A stretch of 64,000 nt of DNA from positions 1 to 64,000 of the forward strand of contig NZ_WODC01000008.1 of assembly GCF_009729555.1 (NCBI RefSeq). Direction: 5' to 3'. Positions 25,812-34,897 of the stretch are shown one piece after another (positions within the stretch are counted from its first letter, which is position 1; each line of letters opens with the position of its first letter). The DNA is from Pseudodesulfovibrio alkaliphilus. GTDB lineage: Bacteria; Desulfobacterota; Desulfovibrionia; Desulfovibrionales; Desulfovibrionaceae. The position numbers and the translations under genes are program-made. A model generated the notes under the pieces. The model saw only the letters and a program-made list of their open reading frames with translations, had not been told where the DNA came from and did not search any database.

Positions 25812-26693
25812 ATGCGAAATCCATCCTTTTCCTTTCCCGACTGGGTTGGCGACCTTGTCCCGGACGACGAGCTGTTTGCTCGTGCCTATACCGACATTTC
25901 CAACCGTAACAGGGCGTGGATGAAGACCGGCATCGCCCGGCTGCACGATTGGTATGGCCCGCGCAAGGCCACGCGCACAACGATGGCCCTGCGCTGGCGT
26001 TCTGGATTCGATTCCCGCCAGGTGGCCGAGGCCGTGGATTTTGCCGTGGTGCTCTTTGATGGCAGCCTGTTATCCCCGTCGCGCCTGTTGGCTGCGCTGA
26101 TTCCTGCCATCGCGGTAGGGGTTGGCAATGTCCTTGCCGTCCGGGTGAGCAGCGGGACCCCGTGGCGCAAGGCTATCCTGACTGGGCTCGAGCTGGCCGG
26201 GCAGGAGCTGGTGGTGGACATGTCCGAGCTGCAGGCCAGACGGTTGTTCGGCGAGCTGCGCGAGACCAATCGCTCCGGCGCCGTGGCTGTGCTCGGCCCC
26301 CGGGCTGCGGTCATCAAAACCAACGAATTGCAGGCCGCGTCGCGCATTTCGTTTTGGCGGCCGCGTTACACCCGAGCCGCCGCCATCTGGATGGAGGAGG
26401 CCGACACCTTTGACCTTGAGGCCCTGGCGTTCATTCATCCAGATATCGTCTTCAGTGTCTTCGGGGTCGAGCCGGAGCTGCCTGCCGAGAATTTTTCCTA
26501 CGAGGGCGATGGGTTCGACAACTTTTTGGACGCCATCATGGAGGTGGCCTACGTCCCGGCCGACCGCGCTGAACAGACGCTGGGCCGGGCAAGGATCGTC
26601 TTTGGGCCGGGGCAGGAGGGGTGCTGGATCTGGCCCGACCTGCACCCGGAACATTTCCAATACCAGTCGGTCGCCTGGACCGCCGGAGAGTAA
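25812..26693 (+). CDS. Uncharacterised protein, possibly dehydrogenase-like
   Basis: A 293-residue cytosolic protein with no signal peptide. Around residues 93-135 a small-residue-rich stretch (LAALIPAIAVGVGNVLAV) followed by a helix resembles the cofactor-binding part of aldehyde or histidinol dehydrogenases, and VAVLGPRAAVIKTNELQAA follows. I see neither the catalytic Cys nor His of those families, so it may be a relative without catalysis. It sits between bamD (36 bp) and the EF-G paralogue (1-bp gap), so it is probably co-expressed with the latter. I cannot name the family. Confidence 0.6.
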   Translation: MRNPSFSFPDWVGDLVPDDELFARAYTDISNRNRAWMKTGIARLHDWYGPRKATRTTMALRWRSGFDSRQVAEAVDFAVVLFDGSLLSPSRLLAALIPAIAVGVGNVLAVRVSSGTPWRKAILTGLELAGQELVVDMSELQARRLFGELRETNRSGAVAVLGPRAAVIKTNELQAASRISFWRPRYTRAAAIWMEEADTFDLEALAFIHPDIVFSVFGVEPELPAENFSYEGDGFDNFLDAIMEVAYVPADRAEQTLGRARIVFGPGQEGCWIWPDLHPEHFQYQSVAWTAGE

Positions 26694-29300: not shown

Positions 29301-29428
29301 CATTTTACCGTTTTCTCATCCATACAATTGCCTTTTCTTTGGATAGAGCGTACTAATTCGCGGTAATCCATGATATTTGTGAACCTGATCCCGCGCTTTG
29401 AATGCGCCTGACAAACGGAGTGACGTTC

Positions 29429-31486
29429 ATGTCTATCGGTCCACGCAGCATCATTGTTCTTTTGGGATGTGCGGCCATCGCATGTTTTGCCGGTGCCGCC
29501 CTTGTGGGCGGCTGGGCCGCCTTTGGCGGCGCCGCGGCGTTAATCATGCTTCTCTCGGCTGTGGCTGTCTGGCTCGTGGTCAGGGACAATAATCGGCTGC
29601 AAGAGGCGGTCGAGTCTCTGACGGTGGGCGACGAGGATGGCGCGGTTCTGCCTGTGCTTGCCGGACTTGGAGAAGCCTTGGGGGCATTGCGTGGCGAGAA
29701 GGGGCTGCTTGAGACCGCTCTCAAGGCGCTGGGGAATCCGGCGTTTCTGTGCAATCGCGAGGGGCGAATCCTGCTGGTGAACAAGGCGTTGCTCGACATG
29801 CTCGGCAAGCCGTCCGCTCAGGTGGTCGGGTTTCCGGTGGGACAGGCCGTTTACGGCAAGGGCGATTCTCTGACCGAAAAGGCGCTGCGTTCTGCCAAGT
29901 CTGTGGCCGAGGATGCCGAGGTCTCTTTGTGGGATGGCCGTCGGGCGATCCTTAAGTGCTTTGTCTCGCCGCTGCACGATGAGGCCGGGAAATTGACGGG
30001 TGCGGTGACTTCCTTTGTGGACCTGGCCGAGGTGGTCGAGCAGAGGCGCGAGGTGGAGCGCCAGCGCGAACGCATGGCACAGGCGGGTCAGCAGATCAGT
30101 ACCCTGGCAGAGCATGTGGCCTCGGCCACGGAACTGCTTTCGGCCGCTGCCGATGAACAGGCCCAGGGTGCGCAAAAGCAGCGCAATCAAACTTCCTCCG
30201 TGGCCACGGCCATGGAGGAGATGACGGCAACGGTCATTGAAGTGGCCAGAAACGCCAGCGCTACCAGCGATGCGGCGGGAAAGGCCCAGGAGTCGGCCAC
30301 CGAAGGGGCGTCCATGGTCTCCAGGGCCGTGGAGGCGATCAATGAAGTGTCCGAGGCCGCCGGCCAGCTCGGTCACGAGATCGGCGAACTCGACGCCCAG
30401 GCCGGAGAGATCGGCCGCATCATCAGCGTGATCAACGATATCGCGGATCAGACCAACCTTCTGGCACTCAATGCGGCCATTGAGGCGGCGCGAGCGGGCG
30501 AGGCGGGTCGTGGATTCGCCGTGGTGGCCGACGAGGTGCGAAAGCTGGCCGAAAAAACCATGGCAGCCACCAAGGAGGTGGAGGAGGCCATCGGCACTAT
30601 CCAGTCCCGTTCCCGTCATGCCACCGAGGCCATGCGCCGGACCGAGCAACGGGTGGCCGAGAGTACCAGTCTCTCCAATCAGGCAGGCGAAGCCCTGCAA
30701 CACATCATGGGAAGCATCGGCGACATGGTCGGCCGCGTGACCCAGATTGCCACGGCCGCAGAGCAGCAGTCATCCGCAGCCGAGGACATCGGCCGCAGCA
30801 TTGAGGACATTGCCGAGATAGCGGGCGAGGCTGACGAGGCCGCCGGACAGGCCGCGAGCGCCACTCGCGAGCTGGCCGGTCTGGCCCAGGAGCTGCTTGA
30901 GGTGTCCAATGAATTTCGCGATGGAGGCGGCGGGTCCCGGTTGCGCGAGTCCCAGGGACGAATGAAAGGGGTGCTGCCCAAGCTCGCCCAGGCTTTTGTC
31001 CGCAAGAAATACGGCGACAAGGTTTATGACGCTGTGCAAAAGGAGATGGGCAATCCGGTGTTCCTGCCAACAGAGAGCTACCCCGATCAGGCGTTGCTTC
31101 AGATGGCCGAAACCGCCGCCGCCGCAGCAGCCATTACCGTGCGCGATTTCTTCATTGAGTTCGGTAAGTATTCCATCAAGCGGTTTCATGAGATGTACCC
31201 GCGCCATTTCAAGAAGGAGTCCCTCAAGGAATTCTATCTGCGCATGAATGACATCCATGCCCAATTGACCAAGGACCAGCCGGGCATCAAGCCTCCCGTG
31301 TTCACATATGAAGACAAGGGGGAGGAATTGTTTATGAACTACAAGTCGAGCCGGGGGCTGTTCGACTATTTCGAGGGCATCCTGCTTGGGGCGGCCGAGT
31401 TCAAGGGGGAGAAGGTCACAGTCAGGGTCAAACCCTTTGACGAGACTTCGGCCCGGGCCGAAATCGTCTTTCAGAGCAAGGGATAA
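29429..31486 (+). CDS. Methyl-accepting chemotaxis protein with PAS domain and C-terminal haem-binding H-NOX domain
   Basis: A 685-residue receptor. Two hydrophobic segments (about 7-27 and 33-52) anchor it. A PAS-like domain spans about 95-200 and no HAMP is obvious. The signalling hairpin runs about 225-495, with [41 protein letters not shown] in pieces at 338-378. Residues 512-685 form an H-NOX domain: [12 protein letters not shown] at its start, proximal haem ligand His610 in [10 protein letters not shown], and the haem-propionate motif Tyr638-X-Ser640-X-Arg642. Tyr647 matches the distal tyrosine that lets Thermoanaerobacter H-NOX hold oxygen. GGAG lies eight bases before the ATG. cheA and cheB follow. 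Likely a gas (O2 or NO) sensor for taxis; the ligand is inferred. Confidence 0.93.
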
Positions 31487-31629: not shown

Positions 31630-33795
31630 ATGTCCGATGATCTCAACAGGCAGATATTCAAGGAAGAGGCCTACGACCTTTTGGGTGAACTGGAGGGAGC
31701 GCTGCTCGAACTTGAGGAGTCCCCGGACGATATGGACACGGTCAATCAGATATTCCGTGCCCTGCATACCATCAAGGGATCCGGGTCCATGTTCGGGTTC
31801 GAGGAGATCGCAGCTTTCACCCATGAGGTGGAGTCCGCCTTTGACATGGTTCGCAACAATGCCCTTGAGGTGACCCCTGAGCTGTGCGGCTTGGCCTTGC
31901 GCTCTCGCGACCACATCAAGCGCATGCTTGGCGCGGCCGAAGGGGAGGAGGTGGACCCCGCAGAGCACCGGGCCATTCTCGATGGCCTCAAGGAACTGGC
32001 TTCGGGCGAGCCCGCATCGCCGGAAGTCGGGGAGCAGACGCCTGCGGGGACCGAAGAGGCCGGGGTGACCGCTGCCGAGTCGGTTTCTTCACAGGGTCGC
32101 CGCCTGTATCGCATCGGTCTGACGCCCCGCACGGGCGAGGAGCCGGACGAGACCCGATTGGAGTCGCTCTTTCTGGAGCTTGCCGGGGTGGGGGAGTTCC
32201 GCATCCTCGGGCGGCCAGTGGAGACCGTGTTTGGCGGATGGGAGCTTGGGTTGACCACAGATATCGACGCCGACAGTGTGCGCGATATATTCTTTTTCGC
32301 GGATGCGGACCTTGATGTGGAAATTCTGGACGAGCAGGGTGCCCCTGTGCCGGTTACGGGCGCTCCCGAGGCTCCTTGCGCCGTACTGAAGCCGGTCGAC
32401 GGCATGGCGGACGACGCCGTGTGCGAGGACGAGGACGCCGGGCCGCCCAGGCTCGGGGAGATTCTTGTCAAGTGCGGCGATGTGACCGAGGCGGACATTC
32501 AGGAGGCCCTCAAGAAGCAGAAGCCCCTGGGTCAGATTCTGGCCGAGGAAGGCAAGGTGCCTCCCGAGAAGGTTGAGATGGCCGTGCGGCGGCAGGCTGA
32601 GGCCAAGGAGCTTGATGCCAGCCGCAAGCAGCAGGAAGCCCTCTCCAGCATCAGAGTGGCGGCTGACAAGCTGGACTATCTGGTGGACCTTGTGGGCGAG
32701 TTGGTTATTGTCCAGGCCCAGATCACCCAGGTGGTCAGTGAACGCAGCGACCCTGTCATGACCGCTCTGGCCGAGGAACTGGAACGTCTAAGCGACGAGT
32801 TGCGTGATTCCACCTTGGGCATCCGCATGCTGCCCATCGGCACCTCGTTCAGCAAGTTCCGCCGTCTGGTACGTGACCTCTCGGCCAATCTGGGCAAGGA
32901 AATCGTTTTGACCACCGTGGGGGCGGACACCGAACTGGACAAGACCGTCATCGAACGACTGGGCGATCCTTTGGTTCATCTGTTGAGAAACAGCATAGAC
33001 CACGGCCTGGAGCCACCCGAGGAACGCCGGATGCACGGCAAGCCGCCTCACGGGACCATCCACCTCTCGGCCGAACACTCCGGCGGCGAGGTGCTCATCC
33101 GCATCAATGACGACGGCAGGGGCATGGACCCCACGGTTCTCAGGGAAAAGGGCATTGAGCGGGGGCTCATCGCGGCCGATGCCGAACTGTCCAAGAAGGA
33201 TCTGCTCAAGCTTATCTTCGAGCCCGGGTTCTCGACGGCCAAGGCGATCACCAACGTCTCGGGACGGGGGGTGGGAATGGATGTGGTCAAACGGGCCATT
33301 GATTCCCTGCGTGGCGCCATCGACATCGACTCCACCCTGGGCAAGGGGACATCCATTACCATTCGTTTGCCCCTGACCCTGGCCATCATCGACGGACTCC
33401 AGGTGCGGGTCAGCGACGAATATTACGTCATTCCGCTTTCCCTGGTGGAGGAGTGCGTGGAGCTGTCCGCCAGCGACATGGATGAAAATTCCAGGCAGCG
33501 CATCCTGCACCTGCGCGGTGAAATAGTACCTTATATCCATCTGCGTGAGTGGTTCGCCGTGGACGGAGAGAGCCCGCCCATAGAGCAGATCGTCATCACC
33601 GGCGTGGAAGGGAGCCGAGTGGGGATCGTGGTGGACACGGTCATCGGCGAGCATCAGACAGTCATCAAGAGCTTAAGCCGCGTCTATAAGGATGTTGAGG
33701 GCATCTCGGGGGCCACCATCAAGGGGGACGGCTCCATTGCGCTCATCCTGGACATTCCGAGTCTGGTCCGGCGGATCATTGCCGAGTCCGACTGA
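31630..33795 (+). CDS. cheA: Chemotaxis histidine kinase CheA with extra central domains
   Basis: A 721-residue kinase. The HPt domain carries the phosphorylated His46 ([14 protein letters not shown]). Next comes a domain of about 157-240 ([10 protein letters not shown]...[15 protein letters not shown]) seen in some CheA proteins in place of a typical P2. Residues of about 273-325 hold a repeated [20 protein letters not shown] / [20 protein letters not shown] pattern like the N-domain of GspE ATPases. The dimerisation, ATPase ([11 protein letters not shown]-box, [17 protein letters not shown]) and CheW-like parts complete it. GAGGAGCGA precedes the ATG. Probably driven by the adjacent receptor and others. 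Confidence 0.95.
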
Positions 33796-33826: not shown

Positions 33827-34897
33827 ATGGCAAAGAAGATTCGTGTTCTTATCGTTGATGACTCCGCCGTGGTCCGCAAGACCCTGGAGGACATCCTTTC
33901 CTCGGATCCGGGGATCGAGGTTATAGGGACGGCCGTTGATCCCTATGTAGCGGCGCAGCGTCTCAAGAACGAGGTGCCCGATGTCATCACTCTGGATATC
34001 GAGATGCCGCGCATGGACGGGTTGACTTTCCTGCAAAAGCTCATGAAGCAGCATCCCATTCCGGTGGTCATCTGTTCCTCGGTGGCAGAGCAGGGGACGA
34101 GCAATGCGCTCAAGGCCCTGGAATACGGCGCGGTGGAGATTATTACCAAGCCAAGGGTGGGGACCAAGAAGTTCCTTGAAGAATCGAGTATTTTGCTTAT
34201 CGATAAGGTCAAGGCCGCAGCTATTGCCCGGCCAAGGAAGTTCAAGGCAGAGGCCCATCCCATCAAGATCAGCCCCAAGCTCAATGCCGATGCAGTATTG
34301 CCCATGACACGACCGCAAGCCCTGACCACCACCGAAAAAATCTGCCTTGTGGGTGCGTCCACCGGGGGCACCGAGGCGCTTCGCGTCTTTCTTGAGTCCC
34401 AGCCTCTGGGGTGTCCGCCCATCGCCATCGTCCAGCACATGCCCGAGCACTTCACTGCCGCCTTTGCCAAGCGGCTGAATGCCATCTGCCCCATCACGGT
34501 CAAGGAGGCAGCGGACGGCGATCCCATGCTGCGCGGTCAGGCTCTCATCGCGCCGGGCAACATGCACATGCTGCTCAAGCGCAGCGGGGCCAGATATTAT
34601 GTGGAGGTGAAATCCGGGCCGCTTGTCTCGCGTCACCGGCCTTCGGTGGACGTGCTGTTTCGATCCGGCGCACAATACGGCGGGGCCAATGTTGTGGCCG
34701 CCATCATGACCGGCATGGGCGACGACGGTGCCAAGGGCATGAAGGAGCTTTACGACGCCGGAGCGTTCACCATCGCCCAGAATGAGGCCACCTGCGTGGT
34801 GTTCGGTATGCCCCAGGAAGCCATCAAGCTCGGAGGGGTTCACAAGGTGCTGCCCTTGCAGGGCATTGCGGCCGAGATAGTTCGCGTCTGCGGTTAG
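33827..34897 (+). CDS. cheB: Chemotaxis response regulator methylesterase CheB
   Basis: A 356-residue enzyme with an N-terminal receiver (VLIVDDS; phospho-acceptor Asp57 in [11 protein letters not shown]) and a C-terminal methylesterase: Ser in [12 protein letters not shown], His in IVQHMPEHF, Asp in [12 protein letters not shown]. It removes methyl groups from receptors during adaptation after CheA phosphorylates it. It begins 31 bases after cheA. cheR, cheW and cheY are not present here, so this is part of a larger, split system. Its end overlaps the convergent DUF190 gene by four bases. Confidence 0.95.

What the first reader, a model, noticed from the sequence alone, without database searches (positions are those of the whole stretch)
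29429..31486. H-NOX chemoreceptor that keeps the oxygen-binding tyrosine
Residues 512-685 form an H-NOX domain after the signalling hairpin. Seen directly: proximal His610 and Y638-X-S640-X-R642. Tyr647 lies nine residues after Tyr638, the same spacing as Tyr131-Tyr140 in the Thermoanaerobacter tengcongensis protein, whose Tyr140 stabilises bound O2. The supporting residues Trp9 and Asn74 of that protein are replaced by Ala (520) and Ser (582). So this may be an O2 (rather than NO-only) sensor in a probable anaerobe, with a changed pocket. The ligand is an inference.
Basis: partly seen in the sequence, partly recalled or inferred. Interest (0 to 1): 0.7.

Follow-up and report, generated by a model that had tools for sequence, protein, structure and literature searches.

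The report
Oxygen-type haem sensor ending chemotaxis receptor
A sulphate-reducing bacterium carries a chemotaxis receptor whose tail is a haem domain with the tyrosine that lets related domains hold oxygen, but in a rebuilt pocket and at the opposite end of the protein from the studied example; it probably steers these anaerobes by oxygen.

Summary
The gene at 29429-31486 encodes a 685-residue receptor: membrane hairpin, PAS, MCP signalling hairpin, C-terminal H-NOX. His610, Y638-x-S640-x-R642, Tyr647 (= Ct Tyr140), Ala520 (= Trp9) and Ser582 (= Asn74) align as stated. The domain model is a confident H-NOX fold (pLDDT 96.7).

It is not a one-off. 101 distinct domains, nearly all from Desulfovibrionales, share one layout (H-NOX after the MCP hairpin) and one pocket: Tyr140 in 98 of 100 readable, Ser/Thr at 74 in 100 of 101, never Trp9 or Asn74. 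The 51 mainly Bacillota domains, which include the species of the crystallised O2 binder, are the mirror image: H-NOX before the MCP, Trp9/Asn74/Tyr140 wherever readable. Fourteen domains without an MCP all lack the Tyr. Two same-genus relatives have lost Tyr140, one also the haem histidine.

Best reading: a cytosolic O2 sensor feeding CheA (encoded next door), with a Tyr plus Ser/Thr pocket lacking both Trp plugs, so probably weaker or faster O2 binding than Ct. The ligand is inferred; haem and O2 were not measured. The same genome has an MCP with a C-terminal hemerythrin, so the layout has precedent. Novelty: a variant of a known sensor type.

The parts
29429..31486 (+). Complete gene of the MCP/H-NOX chemoreceptor, 685 aa
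   Evidence: open frame, Pfam PAS + MCPsignal + HNOB
29417..29420 (+). GGAG, probable ribosome-binding site for the start at 29429
   Evidence: sequence read; inference
29441..29590 (+). Membrane hairpin, residues about 5-54, hardly any periplasmic loop
   Evidence: hydropathy 1-33 and 34-54; model helices 5-26 and 29-66, low confidence there
29708..30037 (+). PAS domain, residues 94-203
   Evidence: Pfam PAS_4/PAS_9/PAS; strands 105-198 in the model
30026..30919 (+). MCP antiparallel helical hairpin, residues 200-497, turn near residue 356
   Evidence: MCPsignal 280-464; two helices 200-355 and 357-497 in the model
30920..30961 (+). Linker, residues 498-511, between hairpin and H-NOX
   Evidence: no helix or strand until residue 511 and locally lower pLDDT
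30962..31483 (+). H-NOX domain, residues 512-685
30986..30988 (+). Ala520, place of Ct Trp9
31151..31153 (+). Phe575, place of Ct Trp67
31172..31174 (+). Ser582, place of Ct Asn74; Ser or Thr in 100 of 101 domains of this layout
31256..31258 (+). His610, proximal haem ligand (Ct His102)
31340..31354 (+). Y638-x-S640-x-R642, haem propionate motif (its role recalled)
   Evidence: invariant in 100 of 100 readable domains of this layout
31367..31369 (+). Tyr647, place of Ct Tyr140, distal H-bond donor
31630..33795 (+). cheA, chemotaxis histidine kinase, probable signalling partner
   Evidence: Hpt, H-kinase_dim, HATPase_c, CheW
33827..34897 (+). cheB, receptor methylesterase
   Evidence: Response_reg + CheB_methylest

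Best explanation
A membrane-anchored, cytosolic O2 chemoreceptor. Haem b held by His610 binds O2, and Tyr647 donates the stabilising hydrogen bond, aided by the hydroxyl of Ser582 in place of the Ct Trp9/Asn74 pair. O2 binding shifts the H-NOX domain, which hangs by a short linker from the membrane-side end of the MCP hairpin's second strand. This changes the output of the hairpin to CheA (encoded directly downstream), and so lets an anaerobic sulphate reducer avoid or grade oxygen. Shown here: sequence, predicted fold, conserved haem residues, Tyr647 column, domain order, cheA-cheB neighbours, purifying selection. Inferred: haem loading, O2 as the ligand, the Tyr-Ser contact, weaker or faster O2 binding than Ct, the sign of the response, and the cognate CheA.
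For: All haem-site residues are present and nearly invariant: H102 in 100 of 101, and P115, Y131, S133 and R135 in 100 of 100 readable domains of this layout. Tyr140 is in 98 of 100 readable; Ser/Thr at 74 is in all 98 Tyr-bearing ones. The H-NOX part evolves slowly: dN/dS about 0.07 against L031 (0.052/0.752), versus about 0.25 for the TM+PAS part (0.171/0.687); the more distant L006 gives the same order. Model pLDDT 96.7, the 15 best Foldseek hits are Cs/Tt H-NOX chains. cheA and cheB follow on the same strand; a CheA-like gene lies near the receptor in 21 of the 39 loci of 8 kb or more, out of 101 domains. The host has dsrA, cytochrome bd and an MCP with a C-terminal hemerythrin. [quoted passage not shown] passages).
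Against: No member of this clade was found characterised in the paper listings searched. The two residues that hydrogen-bond Tyr140 in Cs (Trp9, Asn74) are both gone. NO-type Nostoc H-NOX entries score as high as or higher than Ct ones in structural Z, so the fold does not tell the ligand. The host also encodes a hybrid cluster protein, a family linked to NO handling (recalled), so NO is a live alternative ligand. The genome has three CheA-type H-kinase_dim matches, so the cognate kinase is not settled.
Confidence: 0.65

Rival explanations
1. An NO (or dual NO/O2) chemoreceptor: without Trp9 and Asn74 the tyrosine no longer holds O2 well enough, and the physiological signal is NO made by neighbours or by nitrite chemistry.
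For: H-NOX domains generally bind NO (recalled); the genome has a hybrid cluster protein; two domains of this layout lost Tyr140 altogether; Cb H-NOX binds O2 about 1000-fold more weakly than Cs despite the same nearest residues (PMC7356049 passage).
Against: Tyr140 is kept in 98 of 100 readable domains, which NO sensing does not require: it is replaced by a hydrophobic residue in NO-sensing H-NOX (PMC12329717 passage) and is absent from the 14 readable, non-Tyr domains without an MCP in this set.
Confidence: 0.2
2. A haem redox or autoxidation sensor: O2 oxidises the ferrous haem and the ferric state is the signal, in the manner proposed for the redox change of DcrH.
For: Loss of both tunnel tryptophans could let solvent and O2 in faster (inference from PMC7356049 passage); DcrH is proposed to signal through a redox-dependent loop change (PMC9388753 passage).
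Against: A redox switch alone would not explain the retained H-bond donor Tyr with Ser/Thr at 74.
Confidence: 0.1
3. The H-NOX domain is a vestige or a purely structural tail and the PAS domain is the working sensor.
For: A PAS domain is present; two relatives lack Tyr140 and one of these also the haem His.
Against: The H-NOX part is under stronger purifying selection than the TM+PAS part in both independent pairs tested (L031, which is the same sequence as L005, and L006), and the haem-site residues are nearly invariant.
Confidence: 0.05

Closest known systems
Ct/Tt/Cs H-NOX (Caldanaerobacter subterraneus MCP-fused receptor; PDB 1u55)
   Different: Ct-type domain is at the N-terminus before the MCP and has Trp9, Trp67, Asn74; here it is C-terminal with Ala520, Phe575, Ser582; 28% identity
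Clostridium botulinum (Cb) H-NOX
   Same: Tyr-type H-NOX that binds O2, said to share the residues nearest the ligand with Cs (PMC7356049 passage)
   Different: Bacillota; not fetched or compared directly here
DcrH of Desulfovibrio vulgaris (MCP with C-terminal hemerythrin)
   Same: Sulphate reducer, cytosolic O2-binding domain at the C-terminus of an MCP, proposed negative aerotaxis (PMC9388753 and PMC13401364 passages); a DcrH-like protein lies in this genome (L190)
   Different: Di-iron hemerythrin, periplasmic domain and HAMP; no haem, no PAS in its described layout
Stand-alone NO-sensing H-NOX (Vibrio, Shewanella, Nostoc; sGC beta1)
   Same: Fold, His, YxSxR
   Different: No distal Tyr, not fused to an MCP; partner is a kinase or cyclic-di-GMP enzyme (PMC12329717 passage)

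Membership tests
H-NOX (HNOB, PF07700) | Profile match over the curated cut-off | tested here: met
   124.8 bits against 25.5
H-NOX (HNOB, PF07700) | H-NOX fold | tested here: met
H-NOX (HNOB, PF07700) | Proximal His and Y-x-S-x-R motif | tested here: met
   His610, Y638-x-S640-x-R642
H-NOX (HNOB, PF07700) | Binds haem | not testable with these tools
   no spectra
O2-binding (Tyr-type) H-NOX | Tyr at Ct position 140 | tested here: met
   Tyr647; 98 of 100 readable domains of this layout
O2-binding (Tyr-type) H-NOX | Fusion to an MCP | tested here: met
Ct-type pocket within the Tyr-type H-NOX | Trp9/Asn74/Tyr140 hydrogen-bond triad | tested here: not met
   Ala520 and Ser582; so not a Ct-type pocket, though Tyr is the accepted key residue
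O2-binding (Tyr-type) H-NOX | Stable ferrous-oxy complex | not testable with these tools
   needs purified protein
Methyl-accepting chemotaxis protein | MCP signalling hairpin with conserved tip | tested here: met
   E 5e-48; most of residues 346-377 invariant in the 30-row alignment that includes the window
DcrH family (hemerythrin MCP) | C-terminal hemerythrin domain | tested here: not met
   C-terminal domain is HNOB; layout alike, domain different

The most novel reading that the evidence does not exclude
A separate class of H-NOX oxygen receptor in Desulfovibrionales: a Tyr plus Ser/Thr gate with the tunnel open (no Trp9, no Trp67), placed at the C-terminal end of the chemoreceptor hairpin as DcrH places hemerythrin, so that O2 is read in the cytosol at the adaptation end of the bundle, with lower affinity and faster kinetics than Ct H-NOX. 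Its Tyr140 may even have been gained independently of the Bacillota class (the unrooted tree leaves this open). Two same-genus receptors that lost Tyr140 would be natural switches to another ligand or to no haem.
Probability: 0.35. Interest if true: 0.6.

Novelty: new variant of a known kind. Interest (0 to 1): 0.45.

Why it matters
Which features beyond Tyr140 set O2 affinity in H-NOX is not settled (PMC12329717 and PMC7356049 passages), and much of the structural work rests on Ct and its mutants (my impression from the PDB list). Here nature supplies a clade with Tyr140 but neither Trp9 nor Asn74, with Ala, Thr or Met at residue 9 in most members, and two members that lost the Tyr. It would also add a third O2-responsive chemoreceptor design for sulphate reducers, beside DcrA (c-type haem; PMC8396549 passage) and DcrH (hemerythrin), and a second C-terminal O2 sensor on an MCP, where the way the signal enters the hairpin is unknown.

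Tried and rejected
Rejected: that the pocket substitutions are a local mutation or sequencing slip. They are clade-wide. Rejected: that the tree shows one or two origins of Tyr140. The Desulfovibrionales-type clade is firm (100/99), but its joining to the Bacillota clade is weak (95/56), the tree is unrooted, its bootstrap had not settled, and at several columns (Ct 37, 43, 82, 117) the clade looks more like the stand-alone domains than like Bacillota. Rejected as evidence: the link between pocket type and domain order. It is a single contrast on the tree, so the two traits may simply be inherited together.

Led nowhere: measuring Tyr647-Ser582 in the model (no model file among those laid in the Python box when I listed them). 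The full-length model has pTM 0.42, so no packing of H-NOX on the hairpin is claimed. Four papers that would bear on priority or affinity (Iyer 2003, Pellicena 2004, Weinert 2010, Wu 2015) are not held. From memory, early H-NOX papers already list a Desulfovibrio H-NOX, so its bare existence is not claimed as new. The viral, phage, plasmid and E. coli collections were not searched.

Caveats on counts: the genome-contig scan uses patterns taken from the query alignment and is biased towards Tyr-type domains; the relatives, class, phylum and Bacillota surveys use the Pfam family and are not. The tallies include the window's own genome. Of the matches one, below the family's cut-off (G776), was not fetched. 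In one search, 189 domain hits in 186 loci were reduced to 171 by dropping identical or contained sequences. Of the 19 rows without a detectable MCP, three are unreadable at 140 and two short Tyr-bearing frames (L066, L071), probably cut from MCP fusions, are set aside; the other 14 are those called stand-alone, and some of them may be fragments too (L172 has a stop inside). Domain order was called with the window's own MCP segment, not with a general MCP profile. The window's PAS segment finds a PAS in 82 of the 101 proteins of this layout. One of the 101 domains (L033) is in a MAG labelled Planctomycetaceae. In one search, L005 and L031 are the same sequence, so there are two independent comparisons, not three.

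Full report
What is there. The frame 29429-31486 on the + strand encodes 685 residues. Pfam finds PAS (99-203), MCPsignal (280-464) and HNOB (513-666, 124.8 bits, cut-off 25.5). Hydropathy shows a membrane hairpin in residues 1-54, and the full-length model shows two long helices, 200-355 and 357-497, then a linker without helix or strand and the H-NOX fold from 511 (mean pLDDT 82.7, pTM 0.42, so relative domain placement is not claimed). Both PAS and H-NOX are therefore inferred to be cytosolic. The gene is followed on the same strand by cheA (31630-33795) and cheB (33827-34897). The opposite strand over the gene carries overlapping open frames, which I did not search further.

How widespread. 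The closest named relative is Pseudodesulfovibrio pelocollis, 90% identical over the domain; it is the same sequence as L005, which genome search places in the window's genus. PF07700 is found in 37 of 60 relatives (own genome included), 97 of 297 genomes of the class (22 of 53 genera), 10 of 297 of the phylum (these include the window's genome and three others of its family) and 31 of 299 of the phylum around Caldanaerobacter (30 over the family's cut-off). Of the 97 in the class, one (G205) has only a stand-alone domain. The matches fetched from these searches, together with the genome-contig scan (46 loci), were put in one alignment: 186 loci, 189 domain hits, 171 distinct domains after dropping duplicates. 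One match, below the cut-off, was not fetched.

Two mirror-image classes. Position 140 is Tyr 98, Phe 2, unreadable 1; position 74 is Thr 89, Ser 11, Ala 1; position 9 is Met 60, Ala 17, Thr 17, Val 2, Ile 2, Tyr 2, Leu 1; position 67 is Phe 85, Leu 14, Met 1, Tyr 1. In 51 domains, Bacillota apart from one record named Calditrichales, as far as named or drawn, the H-NOX lies before the MCP: Tyr140 in 51 of 51, Trp9 in 49 of 49 readable, Asn74 in 50 of 50 readable. Of 19 domains without a detectable MCP, 14 have a readable residue other than Tyr at 140 (Leu 7, Phe 2, Ile 2, Met 2, Val 1), three are unreadable there, and two are short Tyr-bearing frames. The ML tree puts all 73 sampled proteins of the first class on one side of a branch (support 100/99).

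Natural exceptions. L147 (a single-contig genome of the same genus) has Tyr for the proximal His and Phe for Tyr140; L149 (same genus) has Phe for Tyr140 together with Ala at 74. Both keep receptor frames with PAS, MCP and HNOB. H-NOX domains without the proximal His are known elsewhere (group 5 in PMC8738867, section read). Ser/Thr at 74 is present in all 98 Tyr140-bearing members of the clade, consistent with a Tyr-hydroxyl pair, though most of this is shared ancestry.

Selection. Against L031, dN/dS (Nei-Gojobori) is about 0.07 for the H-NOX part, 0.04 for the MCP part and 0.25 for the TM+PAS part; the more distant L006 gives about 0.09, 0.08 and 0.27. A third comparison, L005, is the same sequence as L031 and adds nothing. 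The H-NOX domain is the better conserved of the two sensor parts.

Setting. The genome has dsrA (593 bits), a full-length cytochrome bd subunit I, a hybrid cluster protein, five hemerythrin matches and three H-kinase_dim matches, the window's cheA among them. One hemerythrin match is the C-terminal domain of an MCP (L190), the layout of D. vulgaris DcrH, which binds O2 with Kd 0.3 micromolar and is proposed to serve negative aerotaxis (PMC9388753, passages). A CheA-like gene (phmmer E 1e-10 or better) is near the receptor in 21 of the 39 loci of 8 kb or more, and an EF-G gene related to the window's in 12 of 39; the other 62 of the 101 domains lie on shorter stretches and were not judged. The cheA link is thus common but not universal.

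How it most likely works. A review and two research papers say that Tyr-type H-NOX domains of strict anaerobes form stable ferrous-oxy complexes, that the Tyr is the main determinant, and that they are MCP fusions likely to serve O2 chemotaxis (PMC8738867 passages; PMC12329717 passages; PMC9814294 passages, which also says that the presumed function is not yet demonstrated). In Cs, Trp9 and Asn74 hydrogen-bond Tyr140, and Trp9 and Trp67 are thought to help to block a gas tunnel (PMC7356049 passages). Both Trp are absent in this clade, and Asn74 is Ser or Thr. I infer that the Tyr is held, if at all, by the Ser/Thr hydroxyl, that the tunnel is more open, and that O2 binds more weakly or exchanges faster. 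A caution: Cb and Cs share the nearest residues and yet differ about 1000-fold in Kd (same source), so the affinity cannot be predicted from these residues. The sensor sits at the membrane-side end of the second hairpin strand; how a C-terminal sensor drives the hairpin is unclear also for DcrH (PMC9388753 passages).

Novelty. In the listings of ten searches of the held library I found no description of this clade or of a C-terminal H-NOX on an MCP (with 25 of 29 papers listed, 72, 77, 78); I opened passages of only some of these papers. A 2026 aerotaxis review does not use the term H-NOX in its main text (PMC13401364). Four earlier papers are not held, and I recall a Desulfovibrio H-NOX being listed in early ones, so I rate this a variant of a known kind: known sensor type, different pocket, different place in the receptor.

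Noticed in passing
   Followed up: partly
   Followed up: partly
L190:1-1866 (+), same genome as the window: MCP with a C-terminal hemerythrin domain (DcrH-like), so this organism has two receptors with C-terminal O2-binding-type domains.
   Followed up: partly
   Followed up: no
L033 (DONH01000372.1): A MAG contig labelled Planctomycetaceae encodes a domain 71% identical to the window's H-NOX; probably a mis-binned Desulfovibrionales contig.
   Followed up: no
window 25812-26693 (+): Open frame of 293 aa before the EF-G gene with no Pfam match at E 0.001; a related frame lies near the receptor in 2 of 39 loci.
   Followed up: no
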